From: Hypoxylon rubiginosum
Taxonomy: Eukaryota; Ascomycota; Sordariomycetes; Xylariales; Hypoxylaceae
Assembly: GCA_902806565.1 (NCBI GenBank)
Contig: CADCXA010000029.1
Coordinates: forward strand, 1,488,001 to 1,552,000
Direction of reading: 5' to 3'
DNA: 64,000 nucleotides
Part shown: in pieces, positions 15,505 through 49,542 of the stretch
How positions within the stretch are numbered: position 1 is the first letter of the stretch
Layout of the letters: every line of letters starts with the position of its first letter
The notes under the pieces: generated by a model
The model's input: the letters and a program-made list of their open reading frames with translations, nothing else
Told to the model about the DNA's origin: nothing
The model's database searches: none
Program-made: the position numbers and the translations under genes

Positions 15505-15688
15505 GGTTGCAAGTGTGGTGATATGTTCAAAGCTAATTAATTTTGCTAGGCCGCGAGAACCGTTTGGGGCTTCGATCTAGCCGGGTATATTATTCTGCTT
15601 TGTGTCACCCATATAAGCCACTCAGGGACATTTGCTGGGCACCTAAAACGTAAGGGACAGAAGGCTGGGGACCGTTAACGGTTTATAA

Positions 15689-15693
15689 AAAAC
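15689..15693. repeat. Target-site duplication, left copy (AAAAC)
   Basis: AAAAC immediately precedes the TG start of the 5' LTR and is repeated at 20893-20897 right after the 3' LTR. A 5-bp duplication is standard for Ty1/Copia integrases. Collapsing the two copies restores continuity of the left TIR with its inverted partner. Confidence 0.85.
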
Positions 15694-15847
15694 TGTTAGA
15701 TCCGAGGATTAGCCGGTGGCTGGGAATAAATAAACCCTTATTAAGTAAGCTTTTAAATCAGGATTTTATATATAATAATAATATAAAAATTACACATTTT
15801 TTAATTAAAAGATTTAAACTTAATTTAATTAACCTTTAAATCTAATA
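15694..15847 (+). repeat. 5' LTR of Copia element
   Basis: 154 bp, beginning TGTTAGATCC. The first 31 bases keep their G and C, while the same positions of the 3' LTR have been changed at 16 sites, every one G to A or C to T. Further in, a few sites (for example near 15745) are instead mutated in this copy and intact in the other, so both LTRs were hit independently. The RIP boundary of the whole block lies inside this LTR, near 15725. Confidence 0.9.
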
Positions 15848-18800
15848 ATTAAAAGTTTTATTATTATTTTTTTAACGTTATTTATATATAAAAAAAATAT
15901 TAAAATTATTTACTTAAAATATTTATATAATTAAATAATAAAAAAAATAATTTTTTTAAAATTTTAATTAATTTAAAAAATTAATATAATTAGAAGAAAA
16001 ATAAATTTAAATTAAAAGTTAAATTATTAAAGTTTCTTAATTATTTAATTAATAAAATTTTATTATTTAAAAAATTAAAACTTTTTAATATAACCTTAAA
16101 AAAATACAATAAAAAAACTAATATTATTATTATTTTTATAAAATTAAATAAATTTATAAAATTTATTATAATAAAATAAAAAAAACTAAATTTATTTTAA
16201 ATTAAAAAAAAAAATAAAAACTAACTTATTTTAAATTTAATAAAAAATAAAAAAACTAATTATAAAATAAATATAAATTATTATAATTAATATAAAAAGT
16301 TATATATAAAATAAATTATAGCGGTAAAAAAATTTAATAATTATATATATTAAATTATAATAAATTATTATAAAATTATATATTATATTATTAAAAAACT
16401 AATATAAAAATAATATTAAAAACTAAACGCTTAATATAATAAAACTAAACTAAATAAAAAAAATAATATTAAAAAAAAATATAAAAAAATAATAATATTT
16501 CTTAAAAATCTTAAAAACGCGAGTTAATAATTATAAATTTAAAAGATAATTATATTTAAGGTTAAATTTTATAAAATATTTAAAATATAATATTTAAACT
16601 TATAAATAAAAGATTTTTTAAATATAATAAAAAATTTTTATAAAAACTAAACTATTATTTATAAAATAATTAAAAAATTATAATTTATTAATAATATTTT
16701 ATAATATAAAAACTTTATAAATAATTTTTATAATTATATAATTAAAATAATATATAAAATAAAAAAAATATTTAAAAAAGTTTTTAAACTTATTTATAAT
16801 AAAAAAAACCTTAATAAAAAAAAATTAATTAAACTTTTTTTTAACTAATTAAAAAATAAAAATATAAGTAAAAAAAAATTATAAAAAAAAAGTTAAAATA
16901 TTATATTAATTAATAACTATTTAATATATAACTAATATTATTAATTTATAAAATATTATTATATTTTTTTAAAAAAAACATATAATAATTTTAAATTAAA
17001 AATTTAATTAATTTTTAAAGTTAAGAAAATTTTAAAAAAACTTAAAGCTTTAAATATAAATATAATCACTTAAAAAAAGCAAGTTAAAATCTAGGATTTT
17101 TTAATTTAAAAAAAAATTTAAAAAATTATAAAAATAATTATATAATTAGTTTATAAAAAAAATACCAGTTATATTTTTTATTTTAATAATAAATAAATAC
17201 CTTTTAATTTACTTAATTATTTTAAATAATAAATTAATTATTATTATAATAAATTAAATATATTATTTAATTAATTAAAAACAAACGTTATTTAGTAATT
17301 ATTTTTAGTTAAAAAACCGAACCTTATTAATTTAAATATATAAAATAATAAATATATTAATTAAAAATATATTAATATTATTATTAAATATAATTTATTA
17401 TTTTTTATTATTAATTACCTTAGTTTTATTATAAAAATTAAAACGTAAAAAGTTTTAATAAAATAATAAAATAAACTTAATTTATATATAAAAAAAAAAT
17501 AATACTTTTATAAATAAAATTAAAAACATATATAAATAATATATAATAATTTATTAAGTTAATATATAAATAAAAAAAAATATATTTAATATTATTATAA
17601 AAAAATATAAATATAACATATAAATTAAATAAGTTTTTTTAATTAAAAATATTTAAATATAATATTATAAATTAAAATATTTAAGATTTTAAATCTTAAA
17701 ATATTTTATAAGTTTATTTTAAAAAATAGTTATTTAAAGATTAATAAAAATTAAATATAAAACTTATAATATATTTAAAATAAAATAATAAATTTAATAT
17801 GTTTTTAAACTAAATTATTAGATACTAAAAAAATAAATTACCTTTAATTTTTATAACTATAAAAAAATATTTATTAAAAAAAACTTATATTTTATTTTTA
17901 TATATTAAATGTTAAAAGTAATTTAAAATTATATATTTAAAAATTATAAAATAAAAACAATTTTTAATATAATAAATAATTATTTAAAATAATTAAAACA
18001 TTAATATAAAATTATTATAAAAGTGATAAAAACTAATAATAAGATAATTATTAATAAACTAATTATTAAAAAAAGTTTAAAAATATATAAAATAAAAGTT
18101 AAACTTTTAATATTAAATATATAAGCTTAAAATAATAAAGCTAAACATTTAAAAAATATAATAAAAATAAAAACGTGTGTAATATAAACTAAAATAAAAT
18201 TATTAATATATTTATAATTAAAGATATTTAAAATTATTACTTATTTATATAATTATATATTAAAAGTTAAAAATAACTAAAAAACTTTATTTAATGTATT
18301 TTTTAAAATAGTTAAATAAAAATAAAAGTCTTTTATATTAAAAAATAAAAAACTAAATTAAACGTATTTATAAACATATAAATATAAAGTATATATTATA
18401 ATAAAAAATTAAAAGTTTTATTTAAATAAATTAAATAAATTAAATTTAAAAACTTAAATTAAATATTTAATTAACTATTAATCTTTAAATATATATTATA
18501 TATAAATACCTTATTTAAATAAAATAATTAATATAAAAAATATTATTTTTAATAAAAATAAAATATTTAATAAAAACCTAAATATTTTTTAAAATAATTT
18601 AAAAATTACTAGTATAAAAAAAATAATAACTTTAATTAAAAAATATACCTTATTAGATTTTAAAAACTATATTTTAAATAAAGAATTTAAAGAGATAAAA
18701 AAAATTAATAATATATTATTTATTTTAAAAATAATAAATATAATAAATAAAAAAAAATTAAATACTAATATTAAAATAAAATATTTATATATTATAATTA

Positions 18801-19504
18801 AATTTAAACTATTATTTATATTATTATTAAATCCGCTATTTATTTTATTATATTATATAATCTAAAATAAGAATATAAATTTTATATAAAATTTATTTTA
18901 AAATTTAAAACTTTATAAACTTAAACCGTAAAAAGTTATATTTTTAGTAAATTTTAAAGTTTTTTTTATATAAAAAATAAAACTAAAGATTTTAAATTAA
19001 ACTGGCGTAAAAAAAGCATTATAAAAAAAATAAAAACTATATTAAAAGTTTATTAAAAAAACGCCTTATTAATATAAAAAGTTTATAAATTATTTAATAA
19101 AATATTTTTTTAAATAAATAGAAAAAAATCATTTTAAAAGTTATATTTAAATAAAATCTTAATTAAAAATCAAAAAAATAAACCTAACTATAAAAAAGTA
19201 TTAAATTTTAAACTATATATAAATATACGTTTATAAATTTAATAAATATAAATGTTTTTTAAAATATAAAACTAAACTTATTATATAAAAAAATTAATAA
19301 AAAAAATTATAATTAAATAAAATATATACCGTTACTTTTACTAATAAATTATTTAAAATATTATTAATAATAATTACTTATTTTAACTTTAAAATAATAT
19401 AATATAATATAATAAATATTTTTATACACATTGTTATAATAAATAAGATTTTTATATATATATTATTAAAATATTAAAAAAAGAATATAATATTATAACT
19501 ATAT

Positions 19505-19775
19505 AAAGCTTTTTATAAATTAAGAATCTCGTTATTATTTTAACAAAAAAAATTCTTAAAAACTTTATTAAAATTAAGCTTTAAAAATATATTATATAAA
19601 CTATATTACTATATTAAAAAAAAATTATTAATATTTTTCTATATAAATAATATAATTATAACGTATTAAAAAAATAACAAGATAATAATAATTAAAATAG
19701 TTTTATAGTTAAAAAAAAGATATTAAATAATTAAAAAAAATAAAATCTAATAATTCCTAAAAACTAAAATTATTT
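19505..19775 (+). pseudogene. Decayed Copia reverse transcriptase domain
   Basis: One frame, continuous apart from TAA/TAG codons, reads KAFYKLR-x-SLLF at 19505. This is the Copia hallmark KALYGL[KR]-x-SPxLW once GG-to-AA, CC-to-TT and TGG-to-TAA changes are allowed for. 44 codons after its start, FYINN (19637-19651) stands where the catalytic [FY]xDD box belongs (GAT/GAC to AAT). 39 codons further, FLKT (19754 on) stands at the conserved FLG motif that distinguishes Copia from Gypsy. Spacing agrees with known Copia RTs. No active product is possible. Confidence 0.85.
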
Positions 19776-20738
19776 ATAATTAATTTTAAAAAAGGATTTA
19801 ACTATCTTAAATTTTATATATTAAGAAAATAATTAAATTAATCATTTTATTTAATAAACTATTAAATATATTTATAATTTTATAAAAATTACTTTTATAA
19901 AAAAACTATATTATAAAATAAAAAATCTATTAATATTAATATAAAATTAACTTAATATTATTTATAATTATATTTATTAAACTTAATATATTATTTATAG
20001 CTTTATAATTAACTTAATTTCTTATAAACTTAAATAATATTCATTAAAAAATAATAAATTAAGTTATATAATATTTATATAAAATAAAATAATATACTTT
20101 ATAAATAAAAAATAAAAATAATTTAATAGTAACTAGTAATACTTTTTTTACTAATAATATAATAAACCGTAAAAATTTATAAATTTATATTATAATTTTA
20201 TTTAATAAATTAATTAACTAAAAAACAAATAAATAAAATACTATTATTATATTTATTATAAAAGTTAAATTACTAGTATTAATATAAACTATAAAAAAGA
20301 TAATATATATTAAATAATTAATTAAAAAATTAAAAATTAAACTTAACTATAAAAAAATTAAGGTAAAATATAATAATATATAAATTATTAAACTAATGAT
20401 TTTAAAAATTACTTAATTTAAAATTAAATTAAGGTATATAAATATCTATAACTATTAACTTCGTTAAAAAATTAAAAATAACTTAATTATAATTAAATAT
20501 ATATTATTAATAAAAATAAAAATAAATAAATTAATTAAAACATTACCAGCTTAAAAATAACTAAACCTATTAAACCAGTTAAATATTATAAATATTTAAC
20601 ACCTAGTTAAAAAAAAAAAAAACCAAAAGAATTTAATTAAAATTTAAAAGAATATATTAAATATAAATATTTTAGTTTTATATTAATAGTATTTAAATTT
20701 AAACTTTTAATATAAATAATTATAAATTTAAAAAAATA

Positions 20739-20892
20739 TATTAAATCTAAAAATTAATTAATAACTAAAAATAAATAAACCCTTATTAAGTGGGTTTTTA
20801 AATCAGGATTTTATATATAATAATAATATAAAAATTACACACTTTTTAATTAAAAGATTTAAACTTAATTTAATTAACTTTTAAATTTAATA
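20739..20892 (+). repeat. 3' LTR of Copia element
   Basis: Pairs base for base with 15694-15847 and is more strongly RIPed at its left end. Inner positions near 20790-20796 retain GGG where the 5' copy has AAG. It ends at 20892, directly before the AAAAC duplication. An A-rich tract (about 20727-20738) before it may be the decayed polypurine tract. Confidence 0.88.
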
Positions 20893-20897
20893 AAAAC
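20893..20897. repeat. Target-site duplication, right copy (AAAAC)
   Basis: Second copy of the 5-bp target duplication of the Copia element; see 15689-15693. Sequence resumes at 20898 with CGTTAAAAT, which matches the inverted right end of the giant element. Confidence 0.85.
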
Positions 20898-21059
20898 CGT
20901 TAAAATAACAAAAATACCAAATCTATTAAATCCGCTAAACTTATTAAACTTATAAAATAAGTTAAAATTATAATATATATAACTTATATATTATATAAAT
21001 ATATTAAGTTTTTAATAAATTAATATACTTTATTAATTTAAATTATAAAAAATATATAA
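20898..21059 (+). repeat. Left TIR of giant element (inner part)
   Basis: Together with the 22 bp at 15672-15693 this forms the left terminal inverted repeat. It matches the reverse complement of 49354-49534: about 80 outer bases differ only by transitions, with A/T almost always on this side, then a short gapped patch, then an identical run through TTTATTAATTTAAATTATAA. The copy here is RIPed throughout. Confidence 0.85.
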
Positions 21060-21117
21060 ATTAATAATAATATATAAAATATAATAAGAAAATTAAAATA
21101 AAAATTATTAATTATAA

Positions 21118-21325
21118 TAATAATTTAATTATAATATATTCTTAATTTAATAATAATTTAATAATAATTTATTAGTAGTTAAATAATAGTTTAATAATAA
21201 TTAAATAATAATTTAATAATAATTAAATAATAATTTAATAATAATTAAATAATAATTTAATAATAATTTAATAATAATTTAATAGTATTTTAATTATAAT
21301 TTAATAATAATTAAATAATTATTAT
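21118..21325 (+). repeat. 11-bp minisatellite array, left subterminal
   Basis: About 18 units of an 11-bp repeat of the form TTTAATAATAA alternating with TTAAATAATAA. A few units keep TAGTAG, suggesting an original unit containing AGTAGTAG before RIP. The array lies just inside the left TIR. Confidence 0.8.
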
Positions 21326-24300
21326 ATTATAAAAAAAAAAAATAAATATATATTTTTTTAATGTTAATTAATATATTTATAAGTTATATATTAAGTTTTT
21401 TTTATTTTATAAATTACTGTTATAATTTTAATAGTTAATTAGAATTTTAATTATATTATATTTTTTAATTTTATTTTTTATTATTTTATTTTATTGTTTT
21501 TTATTTAATTATAATATAATTAATATTAAAAATTTATATAAAATAAGTTTTATTTAATAATATTAATTATTAAGTTTTATATTTAATTTTAATAAAGATT
21601 TTTTAATTTTATAAAAAATCTTTTATTTATATATATAAATATAGTTAATATAAAACTAAATATAATAAAAAAAAAATAAAAAACTTAAAAAAGATAACTT
21701 AAAATATAACTTTATATATAATTAAATACTTAAAATTAATTTTTAAAAAAAAGGTAAAACTATAAAATATTTATATATTAAAAATATAACTAAATAATTT
21801 TTAGTTAAATATAATTATAAGAACTTATTATTTATTATTAAAATTTTTATAAAATTAATTAATTTATAACTTTTTCCCACTTATAAAAAAAACTTATAAA
21901 AAAACATAGTAATTTTAATTTAAAATAACACGTTAAAAATATTATAAATAATTATATATAAGTTATAAAATAAATATAATTTATATTTATAAATAATTAT
22001 TAAAATTTATTATTTAATTTTTAATTTTTACCAGTTTATAAAAAAAGTTTATAAAAAAACTTAGTTATTTTAAAATTAAAATATAAAAGTTATAATTTTA
22101 TATATTAATTTATATATATTTAATATTTAATTATTTAATTAATTTATAGCTATTTAACTTTTAAATATTTTTTATATAAATAAATTAAATTAAATAAACT
22201 TTTTTATATTAAATTTCTATTATTATAACTTTAAAAAAAATTATTTAAATAAAAATAAATACTTTTTATAGTTATTAAAACTATAAAAAAAAAATATAAT
22301 TAAAAAAAGTTAAATATTAAATGGTTATTTATAGTTATTATAACTTATAACTATATAATTTCAAGGTATATATTTTAATAAAAATAAATAATAAATATTA
22401 ATTTATATATATAACTATAAAATAATATATTTATATTTATATATATATATATAAAAAAAAGCTACTTTTATTTTTTATTTTTATATATTTTTATTTTTCT
22501 TCTTTTTTCTTTTTTTTCTTTTAATTATTATATTTTTTTATTTTTTATTTTATTTACTTTTTTTTTATTTTTTATTATTTATTTATTTTATTTCTTTTTA
22601 AATCTTTTTTTTTTTTTACTTTTATTATAACTTAACTAAATATATTTATTATAAAATGTTTTATTTATTATATAAATAAACTTTTTAAGAATTTTAAGGT
22701 TTTAAATAATATATATTAAAATTAAAGATTTTTTTTTTTTTATTATAAATATTATTATATATATAATTAGTGTAATAATATATTTTTTTTCTAGTGATTT
22801 ATTTTATAAAATAAAGATATATTTTTATATTACGATTTTTTTTTAAGTAAGTTTAATAAAGTTTATTAAAAACTTTAAAATTTCTAATTTTTAAGAAAAT
22901 ATATATTATTTTTATTATTAAATTAAGGATAATAATAATAAAAAGAATTTAATTAAGTATTAAAAAGTTAAATTAAAACGCTTATTAAATTTTTTTAAGG
23001 TAATAAAAATATTATTTTATAAAAAAATATTAATATTATATTAAAAGTTATTAAATTAAATAGTTTAATATTTTTAATTTATTTATTAAGGCTTAAACTA
23101 AAACTTAAATAATAATAATTAATATATATTATTTAATATAAGTAATTATTTTATTTAATTATAATTTTAATTAATATTAAATGTTATTAGTTTATAATAA
23201 ATAATATATATTATTTTAAAAATCTTTTTAAAAAATCTTTTAACTTTTTTTTTATTAAAATTAATTTTATTTTAATTATTTTATTTATTAAAAATATATT
23301 CTTTTTAAAAAAAAATTAAACTTTTTTTTTAATATAAAATTTAAATTAATTATAAGAACTTATTTTTTTTTAGTAGAAATTATTTTTATAATTAACGTTA
23401 TTTTTTAAAACTTATAATTTAACGAGTTTAATTTTAATGTTTATTAATTATAATTTAATAGTTAATAAGTTTAAACTTATATTATTTTTTTTATTTATTT
23501 ATATTTTATAAAAAAGATTCTTCTTTAAAATTAAAAGTTATTATTAGTTTAATTAAAAACTTTAAAACGTTTAATTTAATGTTAAATTTTATATAAATTT
23601 TGATTTTTTTATTAGTAATATAAACTAAGGCGGAATAAAAATAAAATAAAAAGTAAAATAAAAATAAGATAAAAAGTGAAATAAAGGGTGTTTATATTTT
23701 ATTTTTATATTTTAATTTAGTTATAATTAATTGTTTTTTATAAAATTAAAAAAAAAAAATATTAATAATATTTTTTTAATATTTATTTAAATATATATTT
23801 ATATAATTAATTATAATATATGTTTCTTTTTAATTAACTTTTTATTTTATTTATTTCTTTTATAATAAAATATATTATTATAACACGTTTTAAAAACGTT
23901 AATTAAAAAAATATAAATCGTGTTTTTTTTTATTTATTAAGTTTTTTTATTTTTTATTTAATTTTTTTATTTATTACTTTATTTTTAAAAAGTTTTATAT
24001 ATCTTTTTTAATCTTAGTTATTCTTCTTATTTTTAATTAATATATATTATTATATTTTAACATTTATATAAACTTTATTAAAGTTTATTATTAATTAAAA
24101 CTAATTTTTTATTATTATATATTATTTATTTTTATAGTAATTTTATTAAATAAATATATATAATTTTATTAGAATTTATATAAAATGTAAAAAAGTTTAT
24201 AAATAGTTTAAAATAATTTTTAATTTTTATATAAATAAGTTTAATTATATATATTAATTATATTATTTTTGAAAATATTATTAACTTTTAAAAAAAGATT

Positions 24301-27300
24301 AATTTAAATATATTTTATTAATTTAAATATATTTAAAAATCTAAAATTAATATAAATAAAAAGTTTAGTTAATAACTATTAAAATTTAATAATTTTTTTT
24401 AATTATTTTTAGTTTTAAATTAATAGTTTTTATATTTTTTTTATAAAATATAATTAGATTTTATTAGGTATTATAAAGTTTAATTACGTAATAATAAGTT
24501 ATTATAAATTAATATTTATAATATTAATATTATAAATAAATAATATAATTTTTATAATATGTTTTATTAGTTTAATAACATTTTTTATTAATAATTTAAT
24601 TTGTTTTTATATTTTAAAAAAAAAAGATTTATTTTATATTTAATTATTAATATTTAAAATAATAATAAGTATTTAATTTATAGTAATTTTTAACTTTCCT
24701 AATCTTTTTTTAAAGAAAATAACAATAGGTTTTTATTTTATTATAAGCTTAACGTTTTTATTAAATACTAATAATAAAATATTATAAATTAATATTAATA
24801 TAAAAATAACTATAAACATGTTATTTATTTTTAATTGTTTTATAATAGTTATTATAAAAGTTAAATACTGTTACTTAAATTTAAATTCTTATTATATATT
24901 TAATTAATAAAAGTATTTTTTTCTGTTATTATTATAATAATAATTAGTATATATATTATTTAAATATTAAAATAAAATAATATAATATTAAAATATATTA
25001 TTTTTTACTTAATATTAAATATAGTTTTATTTTAAAGGTAAAATATTATTATATATTTATATATAAATAATTAAAAGTAATTAAAATTTTAATTAGTTTA
25101 AAAAACCCCTTTTAATTTATTTTTATAATTAATAATTAATATTATATTTAATTTAATTTCTTTAAAATAACAGCTTTAACTTATATATTATATATTTAAA
25201 ATAATAGTTTATTTTAAAAAAATTTATTAAATTATTAATAAGGTTTATATATTAAAATATAAAACTTTAAATATATTTTTATTTATTATTATTTAAGTAA
25301 TAATAGTATTAATTTTTATATTTTTAATTTTAATTAAAACTTATTATATAAATTTGTTTAATTTTATATTATTTATTAATAAAAACTAATTATTATATTT
25401 ATTAATATATAAAATATATTAAGATAAATAAAATAAAATTAAAAAATAGTTTATTTATATTTAATTTAAAATTATAAAAAGGTTTTAATTAAGTTTAAAA
25501 AAATTGGAATAAATTATATTAAATACTAGTTAGTTATATAAATTAAAGCTGGTGTATTTATTATTATTATTATTATTAATTTTATTTTTACTTACTAGCT
25601 TTTATAACTATTTTTTTAATTTAATAATAATAGTTATTATAATAAAAACTTAATAAATAAATTATATTTGTAATAAAAAGTTAAAAAAAATAAAATTAAA
25701 AAAGCTTTTAAAAACTAAAGGATTTATTAAAACTAAAAGATTTTTTTTAAAATCTAAAAAAAACGAAAAGGTTTTTTAATATTGTATAAAAAAAGTTAAT
25801 AAATTTAAGTTAATTAAAAATTAATATTAGTTAAATTATATATTAATGTTATTTAAAAAGGAAAAAAAAAACATTTAAACGTTATATAAAATTAAATACA
25901 CGTTATATTTAAAAAGTTATAAAATATAAAAAAGTTAAGAAAAAAATATAAGTAAGTTTAAAAAAGTTATATAATTTTTAAAGATAAATATAAGTGTATT
26001 TTTAGCACTTTTTATTATTTATAAGGAATATTAAAAATACGTTTATATTTTTTAATAAAAGATTATTATAATATAATTTAAAAATAATATTTAATAGATT
26101 ATTTAATTTTTATTTAATATTATAAATATTAAAACTATTTATATAAGTATTTTATGTTTTTACTAGGTGTTAATTCTTAGTAAATATTATATTTATTATA
26201 ACTTTAATTTTAGAATTATTTTTAATTTATAATATTAAAACCTTTTTTTTTTCCACGATAAATTTATTTTATATTTTATATAAGTTTTTACTAGATTTTT
26301 ATTTTAAAAAGTTTATATAACTAGTAAATATTACTAATATTAAAATTACCGGATTAAAATTTAATTAATTTAATTTTATTATAAAACTAGTAATTAATAT
26401 TAAATATTTTAGTTATTTTAAACATATAAAATTATTTTTATTTTTCCCCGCTTTAAATTATAATAATATTAATTATAACCTTATAATATATATTTATTAT
26501 ATTATAGTTAAAAATATTTAGCTTTATAATAATATATTTAACGAAGATATTTTATATTTTTTATATTTTAAAAGCCTTTAAAATATTAATTTTATTTTAA
26601 TTATTATATTATTAATAATTAATAATATTATTATTTAAAGAATTTATTATTTTTATATTTTTAATTATATAGGTTTATTTTTATATTTATTTTATATTCC
26701 CAGGGTTTAATTATAATAAATTTAAAGTTATATATTATAATATTTTTTTTTAATAATTAATAGTTTTTTTATATTTTTAATACTTTTTTATTACGTTTTA
26801 TTATACTTTTAAATAGTATTTTTATTAACTTTTTTAATATATTAATAAAAACCACTTTAATATTTTTTTTTTCTACCGCTTAATAAACTATTATTATATT
26901 TATATTTATTTTTTTATTAATTAATTTAACTGGTTATATAGTTATTATTAACTGTAATAAAACCTACTAAATTATATAATATAATATAAAAGTAAAAACG
27001 GTATATTTAATATTAAAAAAAGCAAAGTTATAATTTAATATTAATTATATAAAATAATATATAAAAATATTAAATAATAATAAACTTATTAATAATTTAA
27101 ATAATATGTTTTTTTTTTATAATAATATTTATTATATATTTAATTATAAAAAGCTTATTATTATTTTAAAAAAGCTAAATAATTAATATATTTTTATTTT
27201 TAAAGTTATTAAGTTAAATATAAAATACTTATATAATATATATATAATATATTATAATTATATTTACTAGGATTTTTTAGGTATTAAAGTTAAGTTTTTT

Positions 27301-29349: not shown

Positions 29350-29417
29350 AACTAAATAATAATTAAATAATAATTAAATAATAATTAAATAATAATTTAA
29401 TAATAATTTAATAATAG
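29350..29417 (+). repeat. 11-bp minisatellite array, internal
   Basis: About six units of the TTAAATAATAA / TTTAATAATAA repeat on the same strand as the subterminal arrays of the giant element, ending in a unit that keeps AATAGC. Confidence 0.7.
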
Positions 29418-35924: not shown

Positions 35925-36335
35925 AATAATTAAACTTAACTTTTTATTTATAAGCGGCTAAAATTAAAACGTTAATATGTTTTTAAAAGGATATTTTTTT
36001 TATTATTTAAACGGTGATATTATTAAGTTTATAAAAGTTAAACCTTATAATAAATAATATAATTTATTTTTAGTTATTAAAAATAAAAATATTAATAAAT
36101 ATTTAAAAAAATGTTTTATTAATTATAGTTTAATAAAAATTAAACCTTGTAATAAATAAAATAACTTACTTATAAACAGTGAAAATTAAAATACCTACGT
36201 ATTTTTATAAAAATATCTTATTAACCGTTTTTTTATAAAAGTTAAATTTTATAATAAAATAAAAAACTTATTTAAAACTAATAAAAATCAAGGTTAAAAT
36301 GCCTAATTATTTTTATAAAAACGTTTTTTACGTTA
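35925..36335 (-). repeat. About 102-bp tandem repeat, possibly decayed protein repeats
   Basis: Four copies with anchors at about 35932, 36041, 36143 and 36244, i.e. periods of about 108, 102 and 101. Each contains a (G/A)TTAAA(C/T)(C/T)TT(A/G)TAATAAA-like block followed by a TTTTTATAAAAA-like block. A 102-bp period equals 34 codons. One minus-strand frame stays open apart from TAA codons and shows recurring TVNKIFL / TIINKTFF-like segments. That is compatible with a helical-repeat protein (ankyrin or TPR class), but I could not align it to either. Confidence 0.5.
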
Positions 36336-39300
36336 TAATAAAAAAAATAATACTAATAAAATATCAGTTATTATTTATAATATTATTATATAATTAATAA
36401 TTATTAATAAAATATAGTTTCTTTTTTTTATTTAATAAGTGATATTAAAAATTATTATATATAAGTTTTTATATTCCTTTTTTTTTATTAAAATAAAAGT
36501 GTTAATATAATAAATATAAAAAAAAATAATATCGTTTTATATTTATTATTATATAATATAAAAATATATATTTATTTTATTAAAAATAAAATTAAATATA
36601 ATAATATTTAATTTAAGTTTATCGGCGTTTAATATATCTTATAGTTAATTATTAAATATTTTTATTAAGTTAATATATATTATTAAACCGGTGATAATTT
36701 AATTTTCCTTAATTTAATTAATAAAATATTTATTAAAACCACCGTTTTTTAATTTTATAAAAAACCAAATAAATAAAACTTTTTTATTATATATAGTTTT
36801 AATAAATATATATATAAATATATTATTTTTATTAAGTTTTAATTATAATATATATATTATAATTTTATATATTAATAATTTTAAAATAATATTAAATATT
36901 AATATAAAAAGTTTTTATAAATTAAATTATATTTTTTTAATAACTTTATTAGGAAAAAAAAAAGTGTGTTTAAATATAAATAAATTTAAAACCTTTTTAA
37001 TTAAACTTTAACTTATATAAATATAATTATTAAATATTATATTTTAATAAGTTTTTTAAATAGCGGTTTTTTTTATTATAATATTTATTTTTATATTTTT
37101 ACTTTATTTTTTTTACTAATTACTTACCTAATTTAAATTATTATTTAATTTAAGTTTTTTAAATATAAGTTTTTTAGTTAATATTATTTTTTTAAATTTA
37201 ATTGCTTTTATTTTATAATGTATTTTTAATAATAACTTTTTAAATTAATTATATATTCGTTTAATTTTTATAACGGTATTTAAAGTTACTGTTAACATAT
37301 TATAATTATTTTTATTAAAAAACTTATTATTAAAAATAATATTATTAAATTTAAATTTTAATTATTAAAAAAAAGTATTAAATATTTTATTTATATTAAA
37401 CTTTTATGTTTTTTTTATATATTCGGTTTATTTAATAGTAAATTTAAAAGTTATAATATATTAAAAAAATAAAATATATTAAAAAAATAAAGATTTAATA
37501 TTTTAAATTTCGGTTATATTATTAAATAATATAAAAAAAAGTTTATTATTAAATAATAAAATAAAAAAATAATCGTTAAATAATAAAATAAAAAGTTTTT
37601 TATTAAACTTTAAATTAAATATATTATATTTAAATAAGGCGGATAATTTTTTTTTAAATAATAATAAAATAATAATTAATTTCTAGTTTAGTTCAAGTAA
37701 TAATAATAAAAATAGTATTATTAAAAAAAAACTTATTAATATAAAACTGGTTTTAAAAAAAACGTTATTCTTAAATTATATATTAAATGTTTTTATATTT
37801 AAAAAAAAGATAAAATTAAACTAATGTTTTAAAATAACGTTAAATAATATAATATAAGTATTTTAAATATTTAAAATATTATAAACTTAAAAAAATAAAA
37901 TATATAATCCGGTTAAATAAATTAAAATAAAATATTATAATATACTTTATATATACTAATATATATTAATATAATAATATTTAACTTTTAATTTATATAT
38001 TAAATTATTTATATTTTATAAAGTTTTTTTAATTTTTAAAATTAAAATTCTATTACTAATTTAATTAATTAAGGTTTTTTTATAAAATATAAGTTAATTT
38101 TATCCGGATTATATAAATTTTTATTAAAAAATAAGTTAGTTTTTTTTAGTTTTTTTATAATAAATAAACTAATTTTATTTAAGTTATATAATTTTTTAAT
38201 AAAAAATAAATTAAACTTTTTTAATATATTATATAATTTTTTTAAAGAAAATAAATCGCTTTTTTTTTTTAGATTATATAGTTTTTTAAATAATAAATCC
38301 TTTTTTTATTATAAAAAAATTACGGTTTAAAAAGATTTTATAGTTAATAAAAAAGGGTATTTTTATAAGTATAATTAAAATAAAATATATATTTATAATC
38401 TTTTATATACTGGAGTTATAAAATGCTAAGAAATATATAAATTTTTATACTTTAAATTAAAAATATAATTTTTAAAAATAAGAATTAAATGTTTTTATAA
38501 TAATAAAAAATATAATAGAAAATTTAAAAGGCTAGGTTAATTAATAAAATAAGCGTGGTAATTTATTTTATATTAATAATATAAAATAAAATAAAATAAA
38601 AAATAATTAATTAAAATGTTAGTAATATTAAAAAACCGGAGAAATATTTAAAAAAATTTTACGAAGGTTAAAAAAGGTTAATAAATATAATAAAATTTAG
38701 TAAAAATAAAATTATATAATAAATTAATAATATAGTTAAATAGTAAAACTTAAATATAAAATATTTAATAATTATATAATGTTTTTTATTAATATAACTA
38801 TAAAAAAAAAAGGGAAATATCTTAAAGTTAAAAATAAAAGTAATTAATATTTATTAAAATTATAGTTTTATTAAAAGTAAAAACCAAATAATTAAACTTT
38901 TATTAATATATTTATTTTTCTTATTATAATATTAATTAATTAAAAATATTTATATTATTTTTTATATTAAAGTTAAAAAAAGTAAGATTAATTAATTTAA
39001 AAACATATAAAATTATAAATATATTAATATATTTGTTTTTTTTATAAATTTTTTAATAATATTATATATTAATAAAAGTTTTATTTAAAAGCGATGGTTT
39101 TATTTTAAATATATATTTTTATATTATAATAATATATTTATAATTACTAGATACTTTTTAAATTTTTTACTTTTTATATAATTATAAAATAATTAATTAA
39201 CTTTTTTCTTTTTTTAAAAAATAACTTATTTTATAATGATACTTAATATATTATATTATATATATAAAATCATATATATAATAACATTTTTTAAATTATA

Positions 39301-41780
39301 TTTATATAGTTAATTAAGTTTTAAATGTTAATATATATTTTAAAAAGGAAATAAATTCGTAGATTATAAAATTTTAATAATAAAAAACAAATGATTTTTA
39401 TATTTTTTAAATTATAAAAAAATATTTATTATATTTTTAGTAATAAAAGTAGCTAATTAAATTAAGGTAAATATATAAAAAAACATAACTTTATTAAATT
39501 ATATTTATATATTTATATTAAATTAAGTTGTTAAATAAGTATATAAAATATAATAAAAACTTTTTTTTTTTTTAGTTAATATTATAAATTCTTTCTTTAA
39601 ATATTTTATTTTAAATTAAATTTATATTTTTTTTATTTCATTTTTATAATAAATATTAACAATTAATTAAACTTTATTACCATGGTAAATAATTATTAAG
39701 TTTTATTATAAAAGTTTATAAAATACGTTAACTTATTTATTATATAATAAAATAATAAAATCTTAAATATGTTTTATATTATAAATAATTAAATACAAGT
39801 TTTAAATATATAAATATAAGGTATAAATATATATAATATTTATTTAAAGTTATAATTAATTAATTAATAAATTTAAAGCTATAAATTATTATATAATAAA
39901 CGGGTTTTAAGTTTTAAATAATTATATTAAAATTATAAATATTTATATTAAAACTATAGATTATTATATAATAAATAAATTTTAAATTTTAAATAATTAT
40001 ATTATAAATAAAATCGTGGTATTAAATAAATAAATAAATACACGTTTTAAAAAGTTAAAAATATAATTAATAGTATTATAAATAAAATAATATTTTTTAT
40101 TAATAATAACTAGGTTTTAATATATAATATAAATAAGAATATAAATAATATAATATATTTAATAAACAGTAAAATAAGTATATTTATTATTAATTTATAG
40201 TTTTTTTAAATGTTAAAAATTAATATTTTAATTAAGAACTTTTTATAAATAATATTAATAATTAATAATTTAATTAATAAATATATATATATATATTATA
40301 TTTATTAATATTAAAAATATTTATTATAAAAACAGAATTTAATTATTTTTTTAAGTTATTAAACTTAGATTTTTATAATATATTTTTTATTAAATATAAA
40401 AAGCTTATTTAAATATATAAGGTAATTATTTTAAGTTTAAAATATATAACTTAGTTTATAAAAAAAAAAAAGGGATATTTTTAAGGATATTTAAAAGTTA
40501 TAAAAACTATAAAAAAGTAATTTAAGATTTTATATTTTTTATAATTATTTATAAGTAATAAATAAAGAATTTAAATAAATTAAAAAATATTTATTTTATA
40601 GTTACTATAAATAGTTTTATTTTAATATTACTTATATTATTTATTATATTATTTTATATAATTTTATATGTTATTTTTTATATTATTTCTTATATATTTA
40701 TATATAGTTTTTAATATGGTTTTTTAATTACTTTTATTATTTTAATATTAAATAAATTATATTTTAAATGTTTAAGTAAATTAAATAAACTTATATTTTC
40801 CTAGTAAAAAGTATAATAAAAAAAGTTTAAAAAATAAAATAAAATAATAATAAAGTTATAATATTTTAAATAATTAATTATATAACTTATCTATATAAGC
40901 GTAAATTAAAAGTTAATTTTTAATAAGTTTTTATTAATAATTTTATAACTAAGCTTTAGTTTTAATTAGTTATTTACTTTTAATTTTTTTATATCCGGTT
41001 TTTTTATTTTTAATTATTTTATTTTCAGTTTTATTATTTTTATTACGTTTATTATCGCCGCTTTTATTATTATTATTTTTATTATTATTTTTATTATATT
41101 TAATTTAAATAAATATTATATAAATTAATCTAGATTTTTAATTTTTAAAATTAATTAATATTTATTAATATAGTTATTCTTTTTTATTTTAAATTAAGAA
41201 ATTATATAATAATTTACTGTTATAATATAAATTTTATATAAATAAAACTAGCGGCTTTATAAAACCAACGTATTTTATATTATTATATAATAAATAAAAT
41301 GGTTTATTAAACTAAAAAAAAAGTATATTTTAATTATTAATATTTAAAAGTTTAATAAATATATATAAATATAAGCTGGTAATTTTTTTTTACGTCGCGT
41401 TTTTATATATAAATAAAATAATTATATTAAAAAAAAGTTTAACGTTTAATATTATTAAATATTATATTTATAATTTAAAATTAAGTTATATTATAAACTG
41501 TTATTAGTTTAATTAATTAATATAAAAAGGTTTTTATATTAAGTTTAGTTTTTTAATATAATAAAAATTTTACGTTTAATTATAAAACGGTTATTTATAA
41601 TTAAATTAATAAATTTAATAAACAGTTAAACGGTTTTATATTTTTAAGTAAATTTTTTATAAAATTATAAGCGATTAATTAATATAAATATTTTAAAGAA
41701 AAATCTTTTAATAAATAAATTTTTAATAAAAATATTTAATTTTATATTTTATTTTTTTATTAACTATAAATAAACAAGCG

Positions 41781-41952
41781 TTTTTTTTTTTTTTACTTTT
41801 TTTTTTATTTTTTTTTTTACCTTCTTTTTTATATTTTTCTTTGCTTTTTTTTTTTACCTTTTTTTTTATTTTCTTTTTTATTTTTTTCTTTATTTTTCTT
41901 TTTACTTTTTTTTTTACTTTTTTTTTTACTTTTTTTTTTACTTTTTTTACTC
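41781..41952 (-). repeat. Polypurine low-complexity tract (minus strand)
   Basis: About 170 bases almost free of A and G on the plus strand, made of irregular units of poly-T with periodic AC or CTT. On the minus strand this is A-rich with GTAAA and AAAGAAA steps. It would encode a Lys/Glu-rich segment if it was once coding. Strand choice is inference. Confidence 0.5.
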
Positions 41953-44900
41953 GCTTACAAATTTATTAATAATATAAAACTAATAGTAAAATAGGTTTTT
42001 TTTTTTAATAAAAAAATAATATAAATAATAATTTTAATATAAAAAACCTTTAATATTTTTATTTATTTTAAAAAGCTTGTTTTATTTTTAATAAAAGTGG
42101 GTTTAAAACTAGTAATTATACGGTAATTTATTTTAAAGTTTTTTACTTTTTTTTATATATTATTATATAAGCTTTAAAAAATTTTTTTTTTATATTTATT
42201 ATTTTAAATTAAAATATTATATTTTCGTTATAAAAATTATTAAATATTATTAATTTATAATTAGAAAACTTTATTATATAAAAGTGTTTTTTAATTTAAA
42301 TTTAAAAATATTAAATAAACTAGAAATATTTAGTTTTTTAAAAATAAAAAAGTAATTTAAAATTAAGTTTATAATAAATATTATTATAAAACTAATAATA
42401 TATAAATTAATTATTATTTTTAAAAGGAATTTAAATTTAATATTTTATTAAAATTTATATATTAATTAAATAAAAAGTTATATAAGTTATATAAATTTAT
42501 TATTAATAATTTTATAAACTAATATATATAATGTTTTTTTATTGGTTTTTATAATAAAAAAAATATAAAAAGTAATTTTTATTTATAAAGTTATTTAACT
42601 TTAAAACTAGTTATATATTAAACGTTTTATTTTTTTATATATAATTAATTTTTTTTTTAAAACGTTAAATACATATATAATATTTTTATTAGTAATATTA
42701 AAATTCTTAAAATAGTTATATTATAATATATTTTTATTTAATATATTTTTAATTAATATACTTTTAATTAATATATTTTAAATTATTTTATTTTTTTATA
42801 AGTTAATAAAAAACTATATAAATATATTTAAACTTATTATATAAATTATACTATTTATATTATTTATAACATAAAAAATAACAAATATATTAAACTAAGT
42901 ATTAAATATAATATATTATTTATATTTTTTTTTATTAGTTAATAATTATAATATAAAATTATAAATAATAATATAAATATATTAAATAAAAGTTTTTATT
43001 AAAAGATTTATAAATATTTTTATAAAAATAATTTAATTAACGTTTATATTTATTAAATATTACTTATTAATTATTTTTTAAGTAATAATTTTAATATAAA
43101 AGTATTATAAAAAATAAAAGTATTAAAATTATTATAAATAAAAATATAATATAAAAAAATTAATAATTATATAATTAAAAAAGTTTAATAAAAGTAATAA
43201 CTGTTTTTTTTTATTTTTTTTTATATTTTTTTATAAATGGTTTTTTATTATAATTAAAAAATAACCAGGTTATTTATATTATATAATAACTTATTAAATT
43301 ATACGTTTTTATTTATAAAACCACCACGTTAAAAATAAGAAGTTATATATATTTAAAGTTAAAAAAGTAAAGTTAAAAAATTAACAGTTAATAGTTTTAT
43401 TTATTTTAATTAGTTATATTTTATTAACTATTTAAATAAAAATACTTTTTTTAAATATAAAATTATTATATAACGTTTTATTTTTTTAATAAATTAATAA
43501 TAATATATATAACGTATTAATATTTAAATAACTTTTAAAATAAATTAAATATAAATTAAAAAATATATAAGAAATTAATATATAAAAACTAATATATATA
43601 ATTATAATTAACTAAAAATATATAATTTAATTAAATAAATTTAAAAATAATATTAAAAAACTTATAAAAAAGGTTTTTTATTATTAAAAAAAAGTGGCGA
43701 CTTAGTTTAAACTATTAGTAAGAATTTTACTTTTATTATAATAAAAAATATATTTTTATTTTAAGCCGCCGGAAAAAATTTTATTTATATTATAATAAAA
43801 AGTAAATTTTTAATTTATAACTTTTTAAATAAAAAGTTTTTAATAATTTATATTAAAATAAGTTATTTATTATAATTAAAAATATAAATAAATGTTTTAA
43901 CGTTAAATATACGTTAAAAATATTTTTTTTAATATAATTAAAAACGGTTTATTATATTAATTTATTAAGATTTAAAAGATTCCTTTTTACTATATAATAA
44001 TAATTAATAAAAATGTTTAATATATTGTTTTTTAAATTTTAAAGTTTTATTAAAAACTTTAAATATAATTTTTAAAAATTATAAAATAGTAAAATAATAA
44101 TAAAAGTTTATTATTTTAATTTTTTAAAAAACTAATAATAAGTAAATTTATTTAAATTAATAAAAAAATTTAAACCAGTTTATAATAATATTAAAAACCT
44201 ATTTTATATATTTAATTATAAAGTTAATATTAATAAAAAGTTTATTAATATAAAATAAAAACTTATTTATATTTTTTAATTGGTTTTTTAAGTTAGTTAA
44301 ACCTATAAATTTAACGTATATTAAAAATATTTTTATTTTATTTTATAAATATTAAAACTGGTTATTTAAAAGTATTAGCTTATTAATTAAACTTAATAAA
44401 TTACTGAGAAAATTTCTTATAATTAATTTTATATATTTAATTATTTACTTTTTTAAATTATTTAATAAAATATATTTTACTATATTATTAATATTAATAT
44501 AAAGGTTTTTTAATGTTAAAAATTTTATTAAAAAAATATTTTATAAATATTATATATTATTTAAAGTTTAAAGTAAAATTTAATAGTTATTATTTATATA
44601 ATTATTTATTATATTTATTATAATAGTTTAATTAATATAAAAAAAAAAAAAAAATTAATTAAAACTTAAGATCTTTTTAAAGTTTTATATTTATAAAAAA
44701 TAAAAAATAGTTTATAAAGAAAAATAAATAATAATATATAATATATAAAATAAATTAAAATAAATAAAGTTTTTTAATAAAATAATTAATAAATTAGTTT
44801 ATATATAATTTAATATTATTAATATATAATTAATATTTTATATTTAAAATATTTAAAGTTTAAATATTAATATATTATTTTTTATTATTTTTTAGTTATA

Positions 44901-44965
44901 TAAAAACTAAATCGCTTAATAATATTAATAAAACTATTTATTTTAAAATAAAATCTATTAAAAAC

Positions 44966-45820
44966 TTTAATAAAAATATAACATTTATATTAATATATAA
45001 ATTTTTTAGTAATATTTATTTAAATATAATTATAGTTTTAATAAATTTAAGAAAATTATTATTTAATGATATTATTAAAATCAGTTAATTAAAATTTAAG
45101 TTTTTTAAAGGTTTTAATAAAAATATAATATTTATATGGTTTTATAAACTTTTAAGCTATATTTAAATAAAGGTAATTTTAATAAATATAAAAAAATTTT
45201 TATTTAATAATATTAAAAAAGAAAGTTATTTAAACTTAATATTATTTAAAAACTTAAATAAAAATATAACGTTTATATTAACTTATAAACTTTTAATTAA
45301 TATTTAAATAAATATAATCTTATTAAATTCTAATTTATTTTTACTTAATAATACTAAAAAAATTAGTTATTTAAAGATATAATTTTTTAGAAATTATAAT
45401 AAAAATATTTTTATTTAATAATATTAAAAGGATTAATTCTTTAAAAATATAATTTTTTAGAAATTATAATAAAATTATAACATTTATATTAACTAAAAAA
45501 CCTTAAAGTAATATTTAATTAAATGTAATTTTAATTAATAAAAAAAATCTTTTATTTATTAATATAAAAAAAATTAACTATTTAAAATTATAATTTTTTA
45601 AAGATTTTATAAAAACTATTACGTTTATATTATTTTATAAACTTTTTATTAATATTTAACTTAATATAACTTTATTAAATTTAAAAAAATTATTATTTAA
45701 TAGTATTAAAAGGATTAATTATTTCGTTAAGAAATTGTTAAAAAACTTTAATAAAAATATAATATTTATATAAATATATAAACCTTTTAACGGTATTTAA
45801 ACTAATAAAAACTTAATAAA
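44966..45820 (+). repeat. About 142-bp tandem repeat, six copies
   Basis: Copies begin at about 44966, 45113, 45254, 45463, 45606 and 45748, with a partial copy at about 45396. Each starts AATAAAAATATAAC-TTTATATTA, continues TATAAACTTTT, then TAATATTTAAATAAATATAA, and ends with a TTATTTAATAATATTAAAA block. Spacing is 141-147 bp; 141 equals 47 codons. In copy 1 one plus-strand frame reads through almost without stops, so a decayed repeat protein is possible. The family is unrecognised. Confidence 0.65.
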
Positions 45821-48800
45821 AATAAAATTAATATTAATAGTATTTAAATAAATATACTTATGTTTTTTAAAATAAAATTACTTTATTTTAAAATTATTAA
45901 TTATTTAATATAAAAGTATTTTAATATTAATTTAATATTATATTCTTTTTAATATAAATTAACGTAATAAGGTACGGTATAATATAATTTAATAAAATAT
46001 AAAAAAAAAGTAAAAAATTAAATATAAAACTATTTTTTTTATATAAATTTTTATAATAAAACTATTTTTAATTATTTATAGTTTATTAAAAAAATTAATA
46101 TAAATTATATCCTTTTTATTAAAATTTGTTTAAAAAATAATATAAAATAAAAAGTTACTAATTTAACTAAATATAAGTAATATAAAAATAATATAATTAA
46201 GTTTTATTATAATTATAAGTTTAAGTTAAATATATTAATAAATATAAGGAAAAATTTAATATATAAATTAATACGTATAATTATAAAATAATTTATCCTT
46301 AAAAGTATAATTTAATTTAAATATATTTAAATATATTTAAAAGTTATAAATTATTAATATAATTAAAAAAAAGTTCGTTATAATAAAAAATAAAAACTTT
46401 TTTTAATTTTAAGATTAAATTAACTATAAAATATAAATAAGTATTAAAGATTTTACTTTATTAGATTTAAAATTTATATAAATATTAATATTTATTTTTA
46501 TAAAATTATATAATATAATATTAATAAATTTAATAGTTTATTTATAAATATAATTAATTAATATTTTAAAATAATTATTATATTAAAATTCCGACTTTAA
46601 ATAACTTATATAAATTATAAAATTAAAACTTTTTTTATAGTTTAAATATAATATTAATTAGTTATATAAACCAGGTTTTAAATAATTATATAGTTTATAA
46701 ATAAAATAAAAGTAAAATATTTATAAAATATATATATTTTAAAGTTATATAAGTTTTATATAAGTTAATATAATATAAAAATTAAATAATAATGGTTTTT
46801 TTTTAAATTAATATAACTAATTATTAAATTATAAATAAATTAATATTTATATTATTAAATATTAATATTAATATTATATTGTTAATAATATTTTAAAAAT
46901 TTATATAATTTAAATTTATTTAAAAAGTATTGGTTTTATATTTAAATTATAATATATATTATTTTTAAAAATTTATTATAATAAAAAATAACCTAGTATA
47001 TTTATTTATAAAATACTTATATTATTAAATAATAAAAAAATAAGGTTATTAGTTATATTAATAAACTTTAAATAAACTTAAATAATATAAAAATAAAAAA
47101 TTATATTATAAACTTGATTTTTAATTTTTTATTATTAAAGTTAACATATTAATTAAAAAAACTAATATATAAATATAATTTTAATAGTTTTTTAACCTTA
47201 GAAACATAATGGATTTATAATAAATAGTTAATATAATATTTATTAAAACTTATTAAAAATAAGGATTATTTATATTTTAATAAATATATTAATTTAAAAA
47301 ATTATTTAAAATAATATAAAAAGAATAAAAAAAAGCTAGTATTAGTATTTAACAAGTTTTTATATAACGGAATAATATAATACATAGCTTAATTAAATAA
47401 AATAAAAAAATAAATAAAAATAAAATAAATATAATTATATAGTTACTTATTAAATATCTTAGAAATAAAAAAATAAACTTAAGAAATACTAGAAATTTAT
47501 ATATTATTTTTTATAATAATTATAAATTACTTATTTTTTAAATATATATTTATAATATAAAGTTATTAAAATAATAAAAACAATTATTTTAATTATTAAT
47601 TATTTTTTACTTAAATAAATATTTATTTAGTTTACTAAATATTATTTTATTATTTAAAGTATTAATACTTAAATATATATTTAAATAAATAAATATTAAA
47701 TAAATAAATATTAAATAATAAAAATTATTATTTTTATTTATTAAAAGTTTTAATTTTATTAGTTTTTTAAAGTTTATATAACTTTTTTTAATTTATTATA
47801 ATAAAAGTTTTTTTTTATATTATATTTAATATTATAATAAGTAAAAATAATTTAGTTTTTATAAACTTTTTTAAAAATATATTATATATAAAACTATAAT
47901 TAAATTATTTATTTTAAATTATAAAAAGAAAATCTTATTTTAAATATATTTTAAATATTTTATAAATTAAACTATAAAAATATATATAATAATAATTTAA
48001 TTGTTTTTATAAGCTTTTTTTAATAAGTTTATATTTAATATATAAAATTTAAAATGTTATTTAAGTTATTATTAGTTTGTTTTTTATAATAATTTATATT
48101 AATTTTTTTAAAATTAAGGTTTTTTAAGCGTTAATTATTATAATATTAATATATAAATTTAAAAGTTTTTTATATTTATTAAAACTAAGGTTTTATTATA
48201 AAAACCTAGTTTTTATTATTTAAAAGATTATAGTTTTTAAAATAATAATATTAAATATTTATATTATTAAAAATATTAAAAATAAATATAATAAGTTTTT
48301 TTATTTAATAAGCTTTTTTATTTATTATTTTTATATATATAAAAACGTTTATAATTATTAAGTTTATTATTTTTTATATAATAATATTTTAATTTTTTTT
48401 ATTATTTAAATAGTTTTATAATAATATTATTATTTTATAATATTAATATTTTTATTAATAAAATACCTTATAATAATATTTTATATAATATTTAATATTT
48501 TTTTTTATCTAGTATTTATTTAAATAAAAAATAAATTAAATATAAATAATATTTATTTATAATAATTATTTTATTTATATTTATAAGTTTATATTTTAAG
48601 GTTTTAAACTTTTATAATTAGTTATTTTTAAATAAATCTTTAAAATTATAATAAAAACTTTAACTTATTTTAATTAATAAGTTATATAAATTATAAAAAA
48701 AAGCCAATTAATTTTTTAATATATAGTTTTTAAATTTAATTATATATATATATAAAACTTATTATTTAAATAATAAAATTATAAATTAAAAAGTTATTAT

Positions 48801-49123
48801 ATTATTTTAATATTAAAATTTTATATATAAATAAACCTAGTTTATATTTTTTTTAATATTAATAAATTAAGCCTTTTATTTAAATTATAAAAATTATATA
48901 TTTTTTTTTTAAATTTTAAAAATAATAAATAAATTTATAGTTTTATTTAAATAATAAAAACTTAAAAAGTTTTAATATATAATAACTAAAATATTAAGAT
49001 TAAAACAAATAAAAAAATTATTATTTAATATATAATAAGTTATATTATTAAAATTACTAATTTAATTAAAAACTTTAAAAATTTTTAATATAATATTTTA
49101 TATATTTTATAATATAAAAACCT

Positions 49124-49284
49124 TAATTTAATTATAATTTAAATATAATTTAATAATAATTTAATTATAATTTAATAATAATTTAATTATAATTTAATAA
49201 TAATTTAATTATAACTTAATAATAACTTAATTATAACTTAATAATAATTTAATAATAACTTAATAATAATTTTATAATAATTTA
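49124..49284 (+). repeat. 11-bp minisatellite array, right subterminal
   Basis: About 14 units alternating TTTAATTATAA and TTTAATAATAA, some with CTTAATAATAA. It lies just inside the right TIR. The array reads on the same strand as the left one, so the arrays are direct although the TIRs are inverted. Confidence 0.8.
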
Positions 49285-49353
49285 AATATTATTATAAATA
49301 CCTTATAAATATAATAAATTTAATTTTAAATTTAAATATAATTATAATTAATT

Positions 49354-49534
49354 ATTATATATTTTTTATAATTTAAATTAATAAAGTATATTAATTAAGA
49401 ACCCAGTATATTTATATAGTATAGGAATTATATATATTATAATTTTAGCTCATTTTATAGGTTTGGCAGGTTTGGCGGATTTGGTAAACTTGGCACTTTT
49501 ATCACTTTGGCGGTTTAGCGTAAATTTACAGCGG
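49354..49534 (-). repeat. Right TIR of giant element, outer part not RIPed
   Basis: This is the inverted partner of the left TIR. Its outer 85 bases (about 49450-49534) keep normal G and C and carry several TTTGGC-like words (49461 on: GGTTTGGCAGG, then TTTGGCGG), which the left copy shows only in RIPed form. It is therefore the best surviving version of the terminus. Confidence 0.85.
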
Positions 49535-49542
49535 AGCTGGGA

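What the first reader, a model, noticed from the sequence alone, without database searches (positions are those of the whole stretch)
15672..49534. A 28.7-kb giant transposon hidden in an AT-rich isochore
The AT block is not anonymous RIPed DNA: its two ends are inverted repeats of about 182 bp. The outer part of the pair differs almost only by transitions, so both descend from one terminus and diverged by RIP. Subtracting the nested Copia gives about 28.66 kb, far larger than ordinary fungal TIR elements. Candidates by architecture include giant DNA transposons (KDZ/Zisupton-like, Maverick-like) or an undescribed cargo-carrying family. Coding content is erased here, so I cannot choose.
Basis: partly seen in the sequence, partly recalled or inferred. 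Interest (0 to 1): 0.88.

Follow-up and report, generated by a model that had tools for sequence, protein, structure and literature searches.

The report
Giant RIP-silenced fungal transposon family
The AT-rich block holds a 28.7-kilobase jumping element with inverted-repeat ends that inserted itself about twenty times or more in this fungal genome and was then mutated beyond recognition by the host, so that it is real but its enzyme family could not be named.

Summary
In the window it runs from 15670 to 49536; without a nested 5.2-kb LTR element it measures 28,663 bp. A capped search of the same genome lists 27 left ends; 19, plus the window's split copy, pair with a right end: 15 pairs span 28.5–29.1 kb, 5 are longer. 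Of these 20 pairs 16 carry an exact 5-bp target-site duplication, 3 one with a mismatch, 1 none. Three internal probes list 23, 31 and 34 near-full matches. Six copies differ from a seventh by 2,617–2,931 transitions but only 11–85 transversions: a nearly uniform family multiplied and was then destroyed by RIP (GC 6–9%). A diverged block elsewhere shares several stretches, among them a gene with codon-position constraint, probably minus-strand. The 5-bp duplications suggest a DDE-type transposase or integrase (inference); none was identified. A RIP-tolerant comparison of one copy found no Starship captain and no fairly close protein-primed polymerase; single short hAT, MULE and rve references found nothing either, with little power. 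KDZ (usually 8 bp) and Polinton (6 bp) do not fit on duplication length. Class: unassigned giant TIR DNA transposon.

The parts
15670..49536 (+). whole element, interrupted by a nested LTR element; 28,663 bp without it
   Evidence: ends defined by comparison with other copies and TSD
15665..15669 (.). left target-site duplication CTGGG
49537..49541 (.). right target-site duplication CTGGG
15670..15693 (+). outermost 24 bp of the left end (first 12 bp not part of the TIR), cut off by the LTR insertion; its last 5 bp AAAAC are one copy of the LTR element's TSD
20893..21058 (+). rest of the left TIR (RIPed); its first 5 bp AAAAC are the other copy of the LTR element's TSD
49360..49524 (-). right TIR; outer part hardly RIPed, with tandem 9-mers
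15694..20892 (.). nested RIPed LTR element, LTRs about 15694-15847 and 20739-20892 (about 154 bp; aligned over 124 bp, the first 31 matched by eye), TSD AAAAC at 15689-15693 and 20893-20897; superfamily not determined
21051..21323. left subterminal array of an 11-bp unit (24.9 copies); similar repeats lie near the right end (about 48893-49346), and shorter arrays at 29325-29416 and 30515-30591
26773..28182 (+). coding-like island 1 (purine/pyrimidine 3-periodicity and RIP-degraded codon usage)
28183..28947 (-). coding-like island 2
33379..35119 (-). best-conserved block shared with a diverged relative, with codon-position constraint; minus strand is the better of two readings; candidate for the mobility enzyme (inference)
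   Evidence: coordinates carried over from copy C43
36390..37882 (-). coding-like island 3, possibly an upstream exon or another gene
44584..46111 (.). weak coding-like island 4
   Evidence: coordinates

Best explanation
A giant TIR DNA transposon family (28.7 kb; internal probes list 23 to 34 near-full matches, so roughly 1 Mb or 2% of a 48.3-Mb genome). Shown: two defined ends, about 170-bp inverted repeats set 12 bp inside the tips, 5-bp target-site duplications of varying sequence, normal-GC flanks at the right ends looked at, and seven compared copies that were nearly identical before mutation. Inferred: a DDE-type transposase or integrase, its own or supplied in trans, binds the ends (the 9-mers in the TIR and the 11-bp subterminal repeats are plausible binding sites) and joins both ends to target DNA with a 5-bp stagger. 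Whether it is cut-and-paste or copy-and-paste is not known. RIP then mutated nearly all C:G pairs except the outer 75-100 bp; no un-RIPed copy was seen. The gene shared with a diverged relative is the best candidate for the mobility enzyme. The superfamily is unassigned.
For: 27 left ends listed; 19 plus the window copy paired with a right end, 15 of these 20 at 28.5-29.1 kb and 5 longer (spans computed by hand). TSD exact 5 bp in 16 of 20 pairs, one mismatch in 3, none in 1 (15 of 19; the window read). Six copies against C43: 11-85 transversions, 2,617-2,931 transitions over 28,224-28,692 aligned bases. Near-full matches, probe copy counted: 23, 31, 34. RIP indices: TA/AT 1.14-1.20 inside against 0.86 in both flanks, (CA+TG)/(AC+GT) 0.19-0.27 against 1.09-1.11. 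GC 0.45-0.64 outside the right end at 20 loci. Coding-like islands (none in one block-shuffled control). Codon-position constraint in the minus reading: middle position 143/1742, first 168/1742, third 241/1599 changed (element 12.83-13.80 kb, seven sequences, codons with more than one change dropped). Diverged relative sharing blocks.
Against: No transposase was identified by any test. Four TSD exceptions are not explained (C29:1119k, C31:841k, C32:377k with one mismatch, C67 with none). The outermost 12 bp of the two ends differ, which is unusual for a classical TIR transposon. The strand of the conserved gene is not certain: a codon-usage score favours the plus strand in 13.6-14.2 kb and the third-position contrast expected for the minus reading is small (140/871 against 101/728). 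Much of the length shows no coding signal.
Confidence: 0.88

Rival explanations
1. A KDZ (Kyakuja/Dileera/Zisupton) element grown large: the KDZ transposase acts on long TIRs.
For: Fungal KDZ elements have TIRs of 139-241 bp, like the ~170 bp here, and KDZ2/KDZ3 of Cryptococcus gave 4-8 bp TSDs (PMC12810828, passages).
Against: Zisupton and Zisupton-1_PGr (a Dileera) make 8-bp TSDs (PMC12730594, passages) and KDZ1 8 bp; here 16 of 20 are exactly 5 bp. Those Cryptococcus elements are 9-11 kb. PF18758 found nothing in the genome, but that search rang in none of 14 controls and would not see heavily RIPed copies.
Confidence: 0.12
2. A Maverick/Polinton-like, virus-related element with integrase and protein-primed PolB.
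For: Size class, several coding islands on both strands; retroviral-type integrases cut with a 4-6 bp stagger (PMC10045372, passages).
Confidence: 0.1
3. A small Starship mobilised by a DUF3435 tyrosine recombinase.
For: 28.7 kb lies in the Starship range of ~20-700 kb; 18 of 20 high-confidence A. fumigatus Starships have TIRs and 19 of 20 direct repeats of 2-12 bp (PMC12153272, passages). The genome encodes an intact DUF3435.
Confidence: 0.03
4. A 5-bp-TSD branch of a known cut-and-paste superfamily (Ginger2, hAT5, Transib, MULE) carrying extra genes.
For: TSD length: Ginger2 4-5 bp (PMC10045372) with 50-180 bp TIRs (PMC2836005), hAT5 5 bp (PMC12730594), MuDR/IS256 4-10 bp (PMC10045372), all passages; Transib 5 bp (recalled).
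Confidence: 0.25
5. A non-autonomous block: host DNA or merged elements between ends mobilised in trans.
For: No transposase recognised; much of the length shows no coding signal; a 15.5-kb relative shares only parts.
Against: A gene with codon-position constraint is shared with relatives, so at least one gene was kept by selection.
Confidence: 0.15

Closest known systems
KDZ transposons of fungi (Zisupton, Dileera, Kyakuja)
   Same: long TIRs (139-241 bp in three Cryptococcus elements), large for a DNA transposon, fungal
   Different: 9-11 kb in the cases read; 8-bp TSD as a rule (4-8 bp in two), here 5 bp; transposase not shown here
Maverick/Polinton
   Same: tens of kb, TIRs, several genes (coding islands on both strands here)
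   Different: 6-bp TSD; no PolB motif set and no fairly close PolB found here
Starship elements
   Same: giant mobile element of a fungus; direct and inverted repeats
   Different: no DUF3435 signal; 5-bp duplications of varying sequence; many equal-sized copies
Ginger2/TDD and hAT5
   Same: 5-bp TSD possible; Ginger2 TIRs of 50-180 bp
   Different: far smaller (recalled); termini not TGTNR; transposase not shown here

Membership tests
DNA transposon with TIRs and TSD | inverted repeats at both ends | tested here: met
   outermost 12 bp excepted
DNA transposon with TIRs and TSD | constant-length target-site duplication | tested here: met
   5 bp exact in 16 of 20 pairs (and window)
DNA transposon with TIRs and TSD | transposase gene | tested here: inconclusive
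   coding islands seen, none identified
KDZ | 8-bp TSD | tested here: not met
   but 4-8 bp reported for two Cryptococcus KDZ elements
KDZ | KDZ transposase domain | tested here: inconclusive
   PF18758 search silent in all 14 controls and weak for RIPed copies
Maverick/Polinton | 6-bp TSD | tested here: not met
Maverick/Polinton | protein-primed PolB | tested here: inconclusive
   not found by motifs or similarity in copy C43; distant polymerases or introns would be missed
Maverick/Polinton | rve-type integrase | tested here: inconclusive
Maverick/Polinton | capsid genes and packaging ATPase | not tested
   no references at hand
Starship | DUF3435 tyrosine recombinase | tested here: not met
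Starship | short direct repeat that reflects a preferred target site | tested here: not met
   repeats present but of varying sequence
Helitron | no TSD, no TIR (recalled) | tested here: not met
hAT (8 bp; hAT5 5 bp) | hAT dimerisation domain | tested here: inconclusive
MULE | MULE transposase domain | tested here: inconclusive
   Z -1.3 with one 98-aa reference of this genome
Ginger2 | TGTNR termini | tested here: not met
   ends are GACCG and, reversed, CTCCG
Transib | RAG1-like transposase | not tested
   no reference

The most novel reading that the evidence does not exclude
An undescribed superfamily of giant multi-gene TIR transposons, with 5-bp target-site duplications, about 170-bp TIRs set 12 bp inside unequal tips, and a diverged sister lineage in the same genome; it may be of viral origin or carry cargo, and has been seen here only as RIP-dead copies.
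Probability: 0.35. Interest if true: 0.82.

Novelty: new variant of a known kind. Interest (0 to 1): 0.6.

Why it matters
Other fungal mobile elements are put at 1-8 kb against ~20-700 kb for Starships, which use a tyrosine recombinase (PMC12153272, passage), and transposition efficiency is said to drop as TIRs lie further apart (PMC6431247, passage). A 28.7-kb element with DDE-like 5-bp duplications and some 30 copies suggests another route to giant size in a RIP-active fungus, and it explains roughly 1 Mb of AT-rich blocks as one family. The RIP-tolerant comparison used here (degrade both sides to A/T codon classes and align) finds RIPed genes that an ordinary HMM scan misses and could be applied to other AT-rich isochores.

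Tried and rejected
Pfam scans of RIPed frames: 48 pieces of copy C43 gave 9 families, best E 0.015; 6 rows of the conserved gene gave none (one row misframed); 6 frames of the nested LTR element gave one at E 0.056. This is uninformative: of 4 host ORFs of this window 3 had Pfam hits (the best 173.7 bits), and all 3 lost every hit after RIP in silico. My simulations of HMM power (one search failed) were far too hopeful, because the simulated homologues were ungapped and centred on the query. PDB profile search: 0 hits (its profile A3 held the misframed row, mended in A4). Structure prediction of the RIPed gene: mean pLDDT 37.6, discarded. Alignment A2 had wrong frames and was dropped. The conserved gene was at first read on the plus strand, then on the minus strand. 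A terminal pattern in viral contigs gave 0. Rfam and tRNA scans of the window gave 0. The LTR alignment was too loose and was replaced; this genome's rve does not match the nested LTR element either (48.0 against a shuffle mean of 46.1), so a silent rve result says little. The relative at C25 shows no clear TIR of its own. Segmental duplication was rejected because flanks differ and TSDs are present. The species was not determined; a RIP-active fungus is inferred from composition.

Full report
Observation. The AT-rich block of the window (GC 5-10% per kb from 16 to 49 kb) is bounded by an inverted repeat, the longest inverted pair listed for the window; its arms differ mostly by transitions.

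Copies. The right end used as probe lists 40 matches in the genome in which the window lies (48,274,338 bases, 70 contigs; 40 of 60 candidates scored). A left-end probe lists 40 (of 52 candidates), of which 27 are left ends and 13 are right ends matched through the shared TIR. Of the 27 left ends 19 have a right end on the same contig in the right orientation; with the window's own split copy that makes 20 pairs. Spans, computed by hand: 15 are 28.5-29.1 kb; 5 are longer (33.9, the window; 34.4; 35.0; 37.4; 45.1 kb), as nested inserts would give, shown only for the window. Of the 8 unpaired left ends 5 lie too near a contig end to hold the element; the other 3 have interior matches beside them but no listed right end. 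Interior probes list 23 matches at 87% or more, 31 at 89% or more and 34 at 86% or more, each counting the probe's own copy; the tool scores 40 candidates at most. Some 30 copies of 28.7 kb make roughly 1 Mb.

Ends and duplications. The element begins GACCGTT (with RIP variants) and ends GCGGAG. For 19 pairs other than the window both flanks were compared: 15 show an exact 5-bp duplication, 3 differ at one base (CTTTC/GTTTC, AAGAT/GAGAT, ATATT/ATATC), 1 (C67) shows none. The window shows CTGGG on both sides: 16 of 20. The duplicated sequences vary. The TIR starts at bp 13 from both tips and is clear for about 170 bp; the outermost 12 bp differ between the ends. Over the copies compared the outer 75 bp keep GC 0.41-0.55, the next 75 bp 0.10-0.25, and beyond 150 bp it is 0.07 or less, so RIP spares the tips.

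RIP. Six full copies aligned to a seventh (C43) have 11, 18, 28, 32, 43 and 85 transversions and 2,617-2,931 transitions over 28,224-28,692 aligned bases (the 43 is the window). These copies were therefore close to identical before mutation. The nested LTR element is RIPed too; its LTRs differ by 6 transitions and no transversion over 124 aligned bases. No less RIPed copy was seen among 7 copies whole, 17 interior pieces of other copies and relatives (GC 5-11%), samples of three more copies (GC 1.5-11%) and 19 inner ends (GC 3-9%).

Coding content. RIP makes only transitions, so purine/pyrimidine patterns survive. Three-base periodicity in the purine pattern is strong in several islands. A scan with codon usage learned from this window's host ORFs, degraded to A/T, marks a plus-strand island near 6.0-7.3 kb and a minus-strand one near 7.3-8.2 kb in all three copies scanned; around 14-17 kb the copies agree on a minus-strand island but not on the strand of the stretch before it; one block-shuffled sequence gives none. 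The best-conserved part was compared with six diverged loci and the C25 relative over element 12.83-13.80 kb, codons with more than one change dropped: in the minus-strand frame the middle codon position changes least (143 of 1,742), then the first (168 of 1,742), then the third (241 of 1,599). This argues for a protein under purifying selection before RIP. The plus reading fits this test less well, but codon usage favours it in part of the block, so the strand is probable, not settled.

A relative. A 15.5-kb AT block at C25:380-395 kb, one of ten loci at 69-74% identity, shares stretches with the element: 22 of 81 windows score 121-442 and exceed 1.35 times the reversed-sequence score, which is 80-110 throughout. 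Longer alignments pair element 3.6-4.8, 11.7-14.4 and 24.7-27.1 kb in order, and 27.0-28.5 kb inverted; two further stretches (9.5-11.3 and 22.5-23.9 kb) match out of order or at a place already matched, so the relation is not cleanly colinear, and outside the conserved gene no codon pattern is seen. Its own ends were not resolved.

Literature (passages only, except one short section of PMC12730594). TSD lengths: Zisupton 8 bp, hAT 8 and hAT5 5 bp (PMC12730594); Cryptococcus KDZ1 about 11 kb, 241-bp TIRs, 8 bp; KDZ2 and KDZ3 9-10 kb, 139- and 169-bp TIRs, 4-8 bp (PMC12810828); Polinton 6, Ginger2 4-5 bp (PMC10045372); Ginger2 TIRs 50-180 bp, termini TGTNR (PMC2836005); Starships ~20-700 kb with a tyrosine recombinase captain (PMC12153272). 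Six searches returned listings (four others failed); in their titles and abstract beginnings I saw no description of such an element. That is not proof of absence from print.

Verdict. I rate it a new variant of a known kind. The mobility mechanism (DDE enzyme, 5-bp stagger) is inferred from the duplications.

Noticed in passing
G000 contigs C10 and C60 (for example C10:594225-595539, C10:182445-182693, C60:138304-138597): Of 11 rows of DUF3435, hAT and MULE matches in the genome, 10 lie on contigs C10 and C60, 7 of these 10 without a stop. These searches would hardly see RIPed copies; still, in a genome with such harsh RIP these two contigs may be an accessory chromosome that escapes it, or foreign sequence.
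   Followed up: no
G000:C63:50441-52036 (-) and 53422-55017 (+): Two matches to the probe from the element's right half stand in opposite orientation about 1.4 kb apart with equal score, like a palindrome or an assembly fold-back.
   Followed up: no
G000:C46:39641-40369 and C28:49782-50510: Two diverged relatives have the same length and GC and identical comparison scores: a recent duplication or a duplicated contig stretch.
   Followed up: no
window 15694-20892: The nested RIPed LTR element (5.2 kb) belongs to a repeated family: 41 matches to window 15600-15800, its own two LTRs counted. This genome's rve reference does not match it; superfamily open.
   Followed up: partly
window 49460-49496 and the same place in other copies: The spared tips hold four tandem 9-mers of the type GCCAARYCY (read on the other strand here), seen at both ends; a candidate transposase binding site.
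   Followed up: no
contigs C14, C16, C17, C26, C30, C34, C35, C40, C59: Element ends lie within one element length of the end of these contigs, so the element seems to break the assembly.
   Followed up: no
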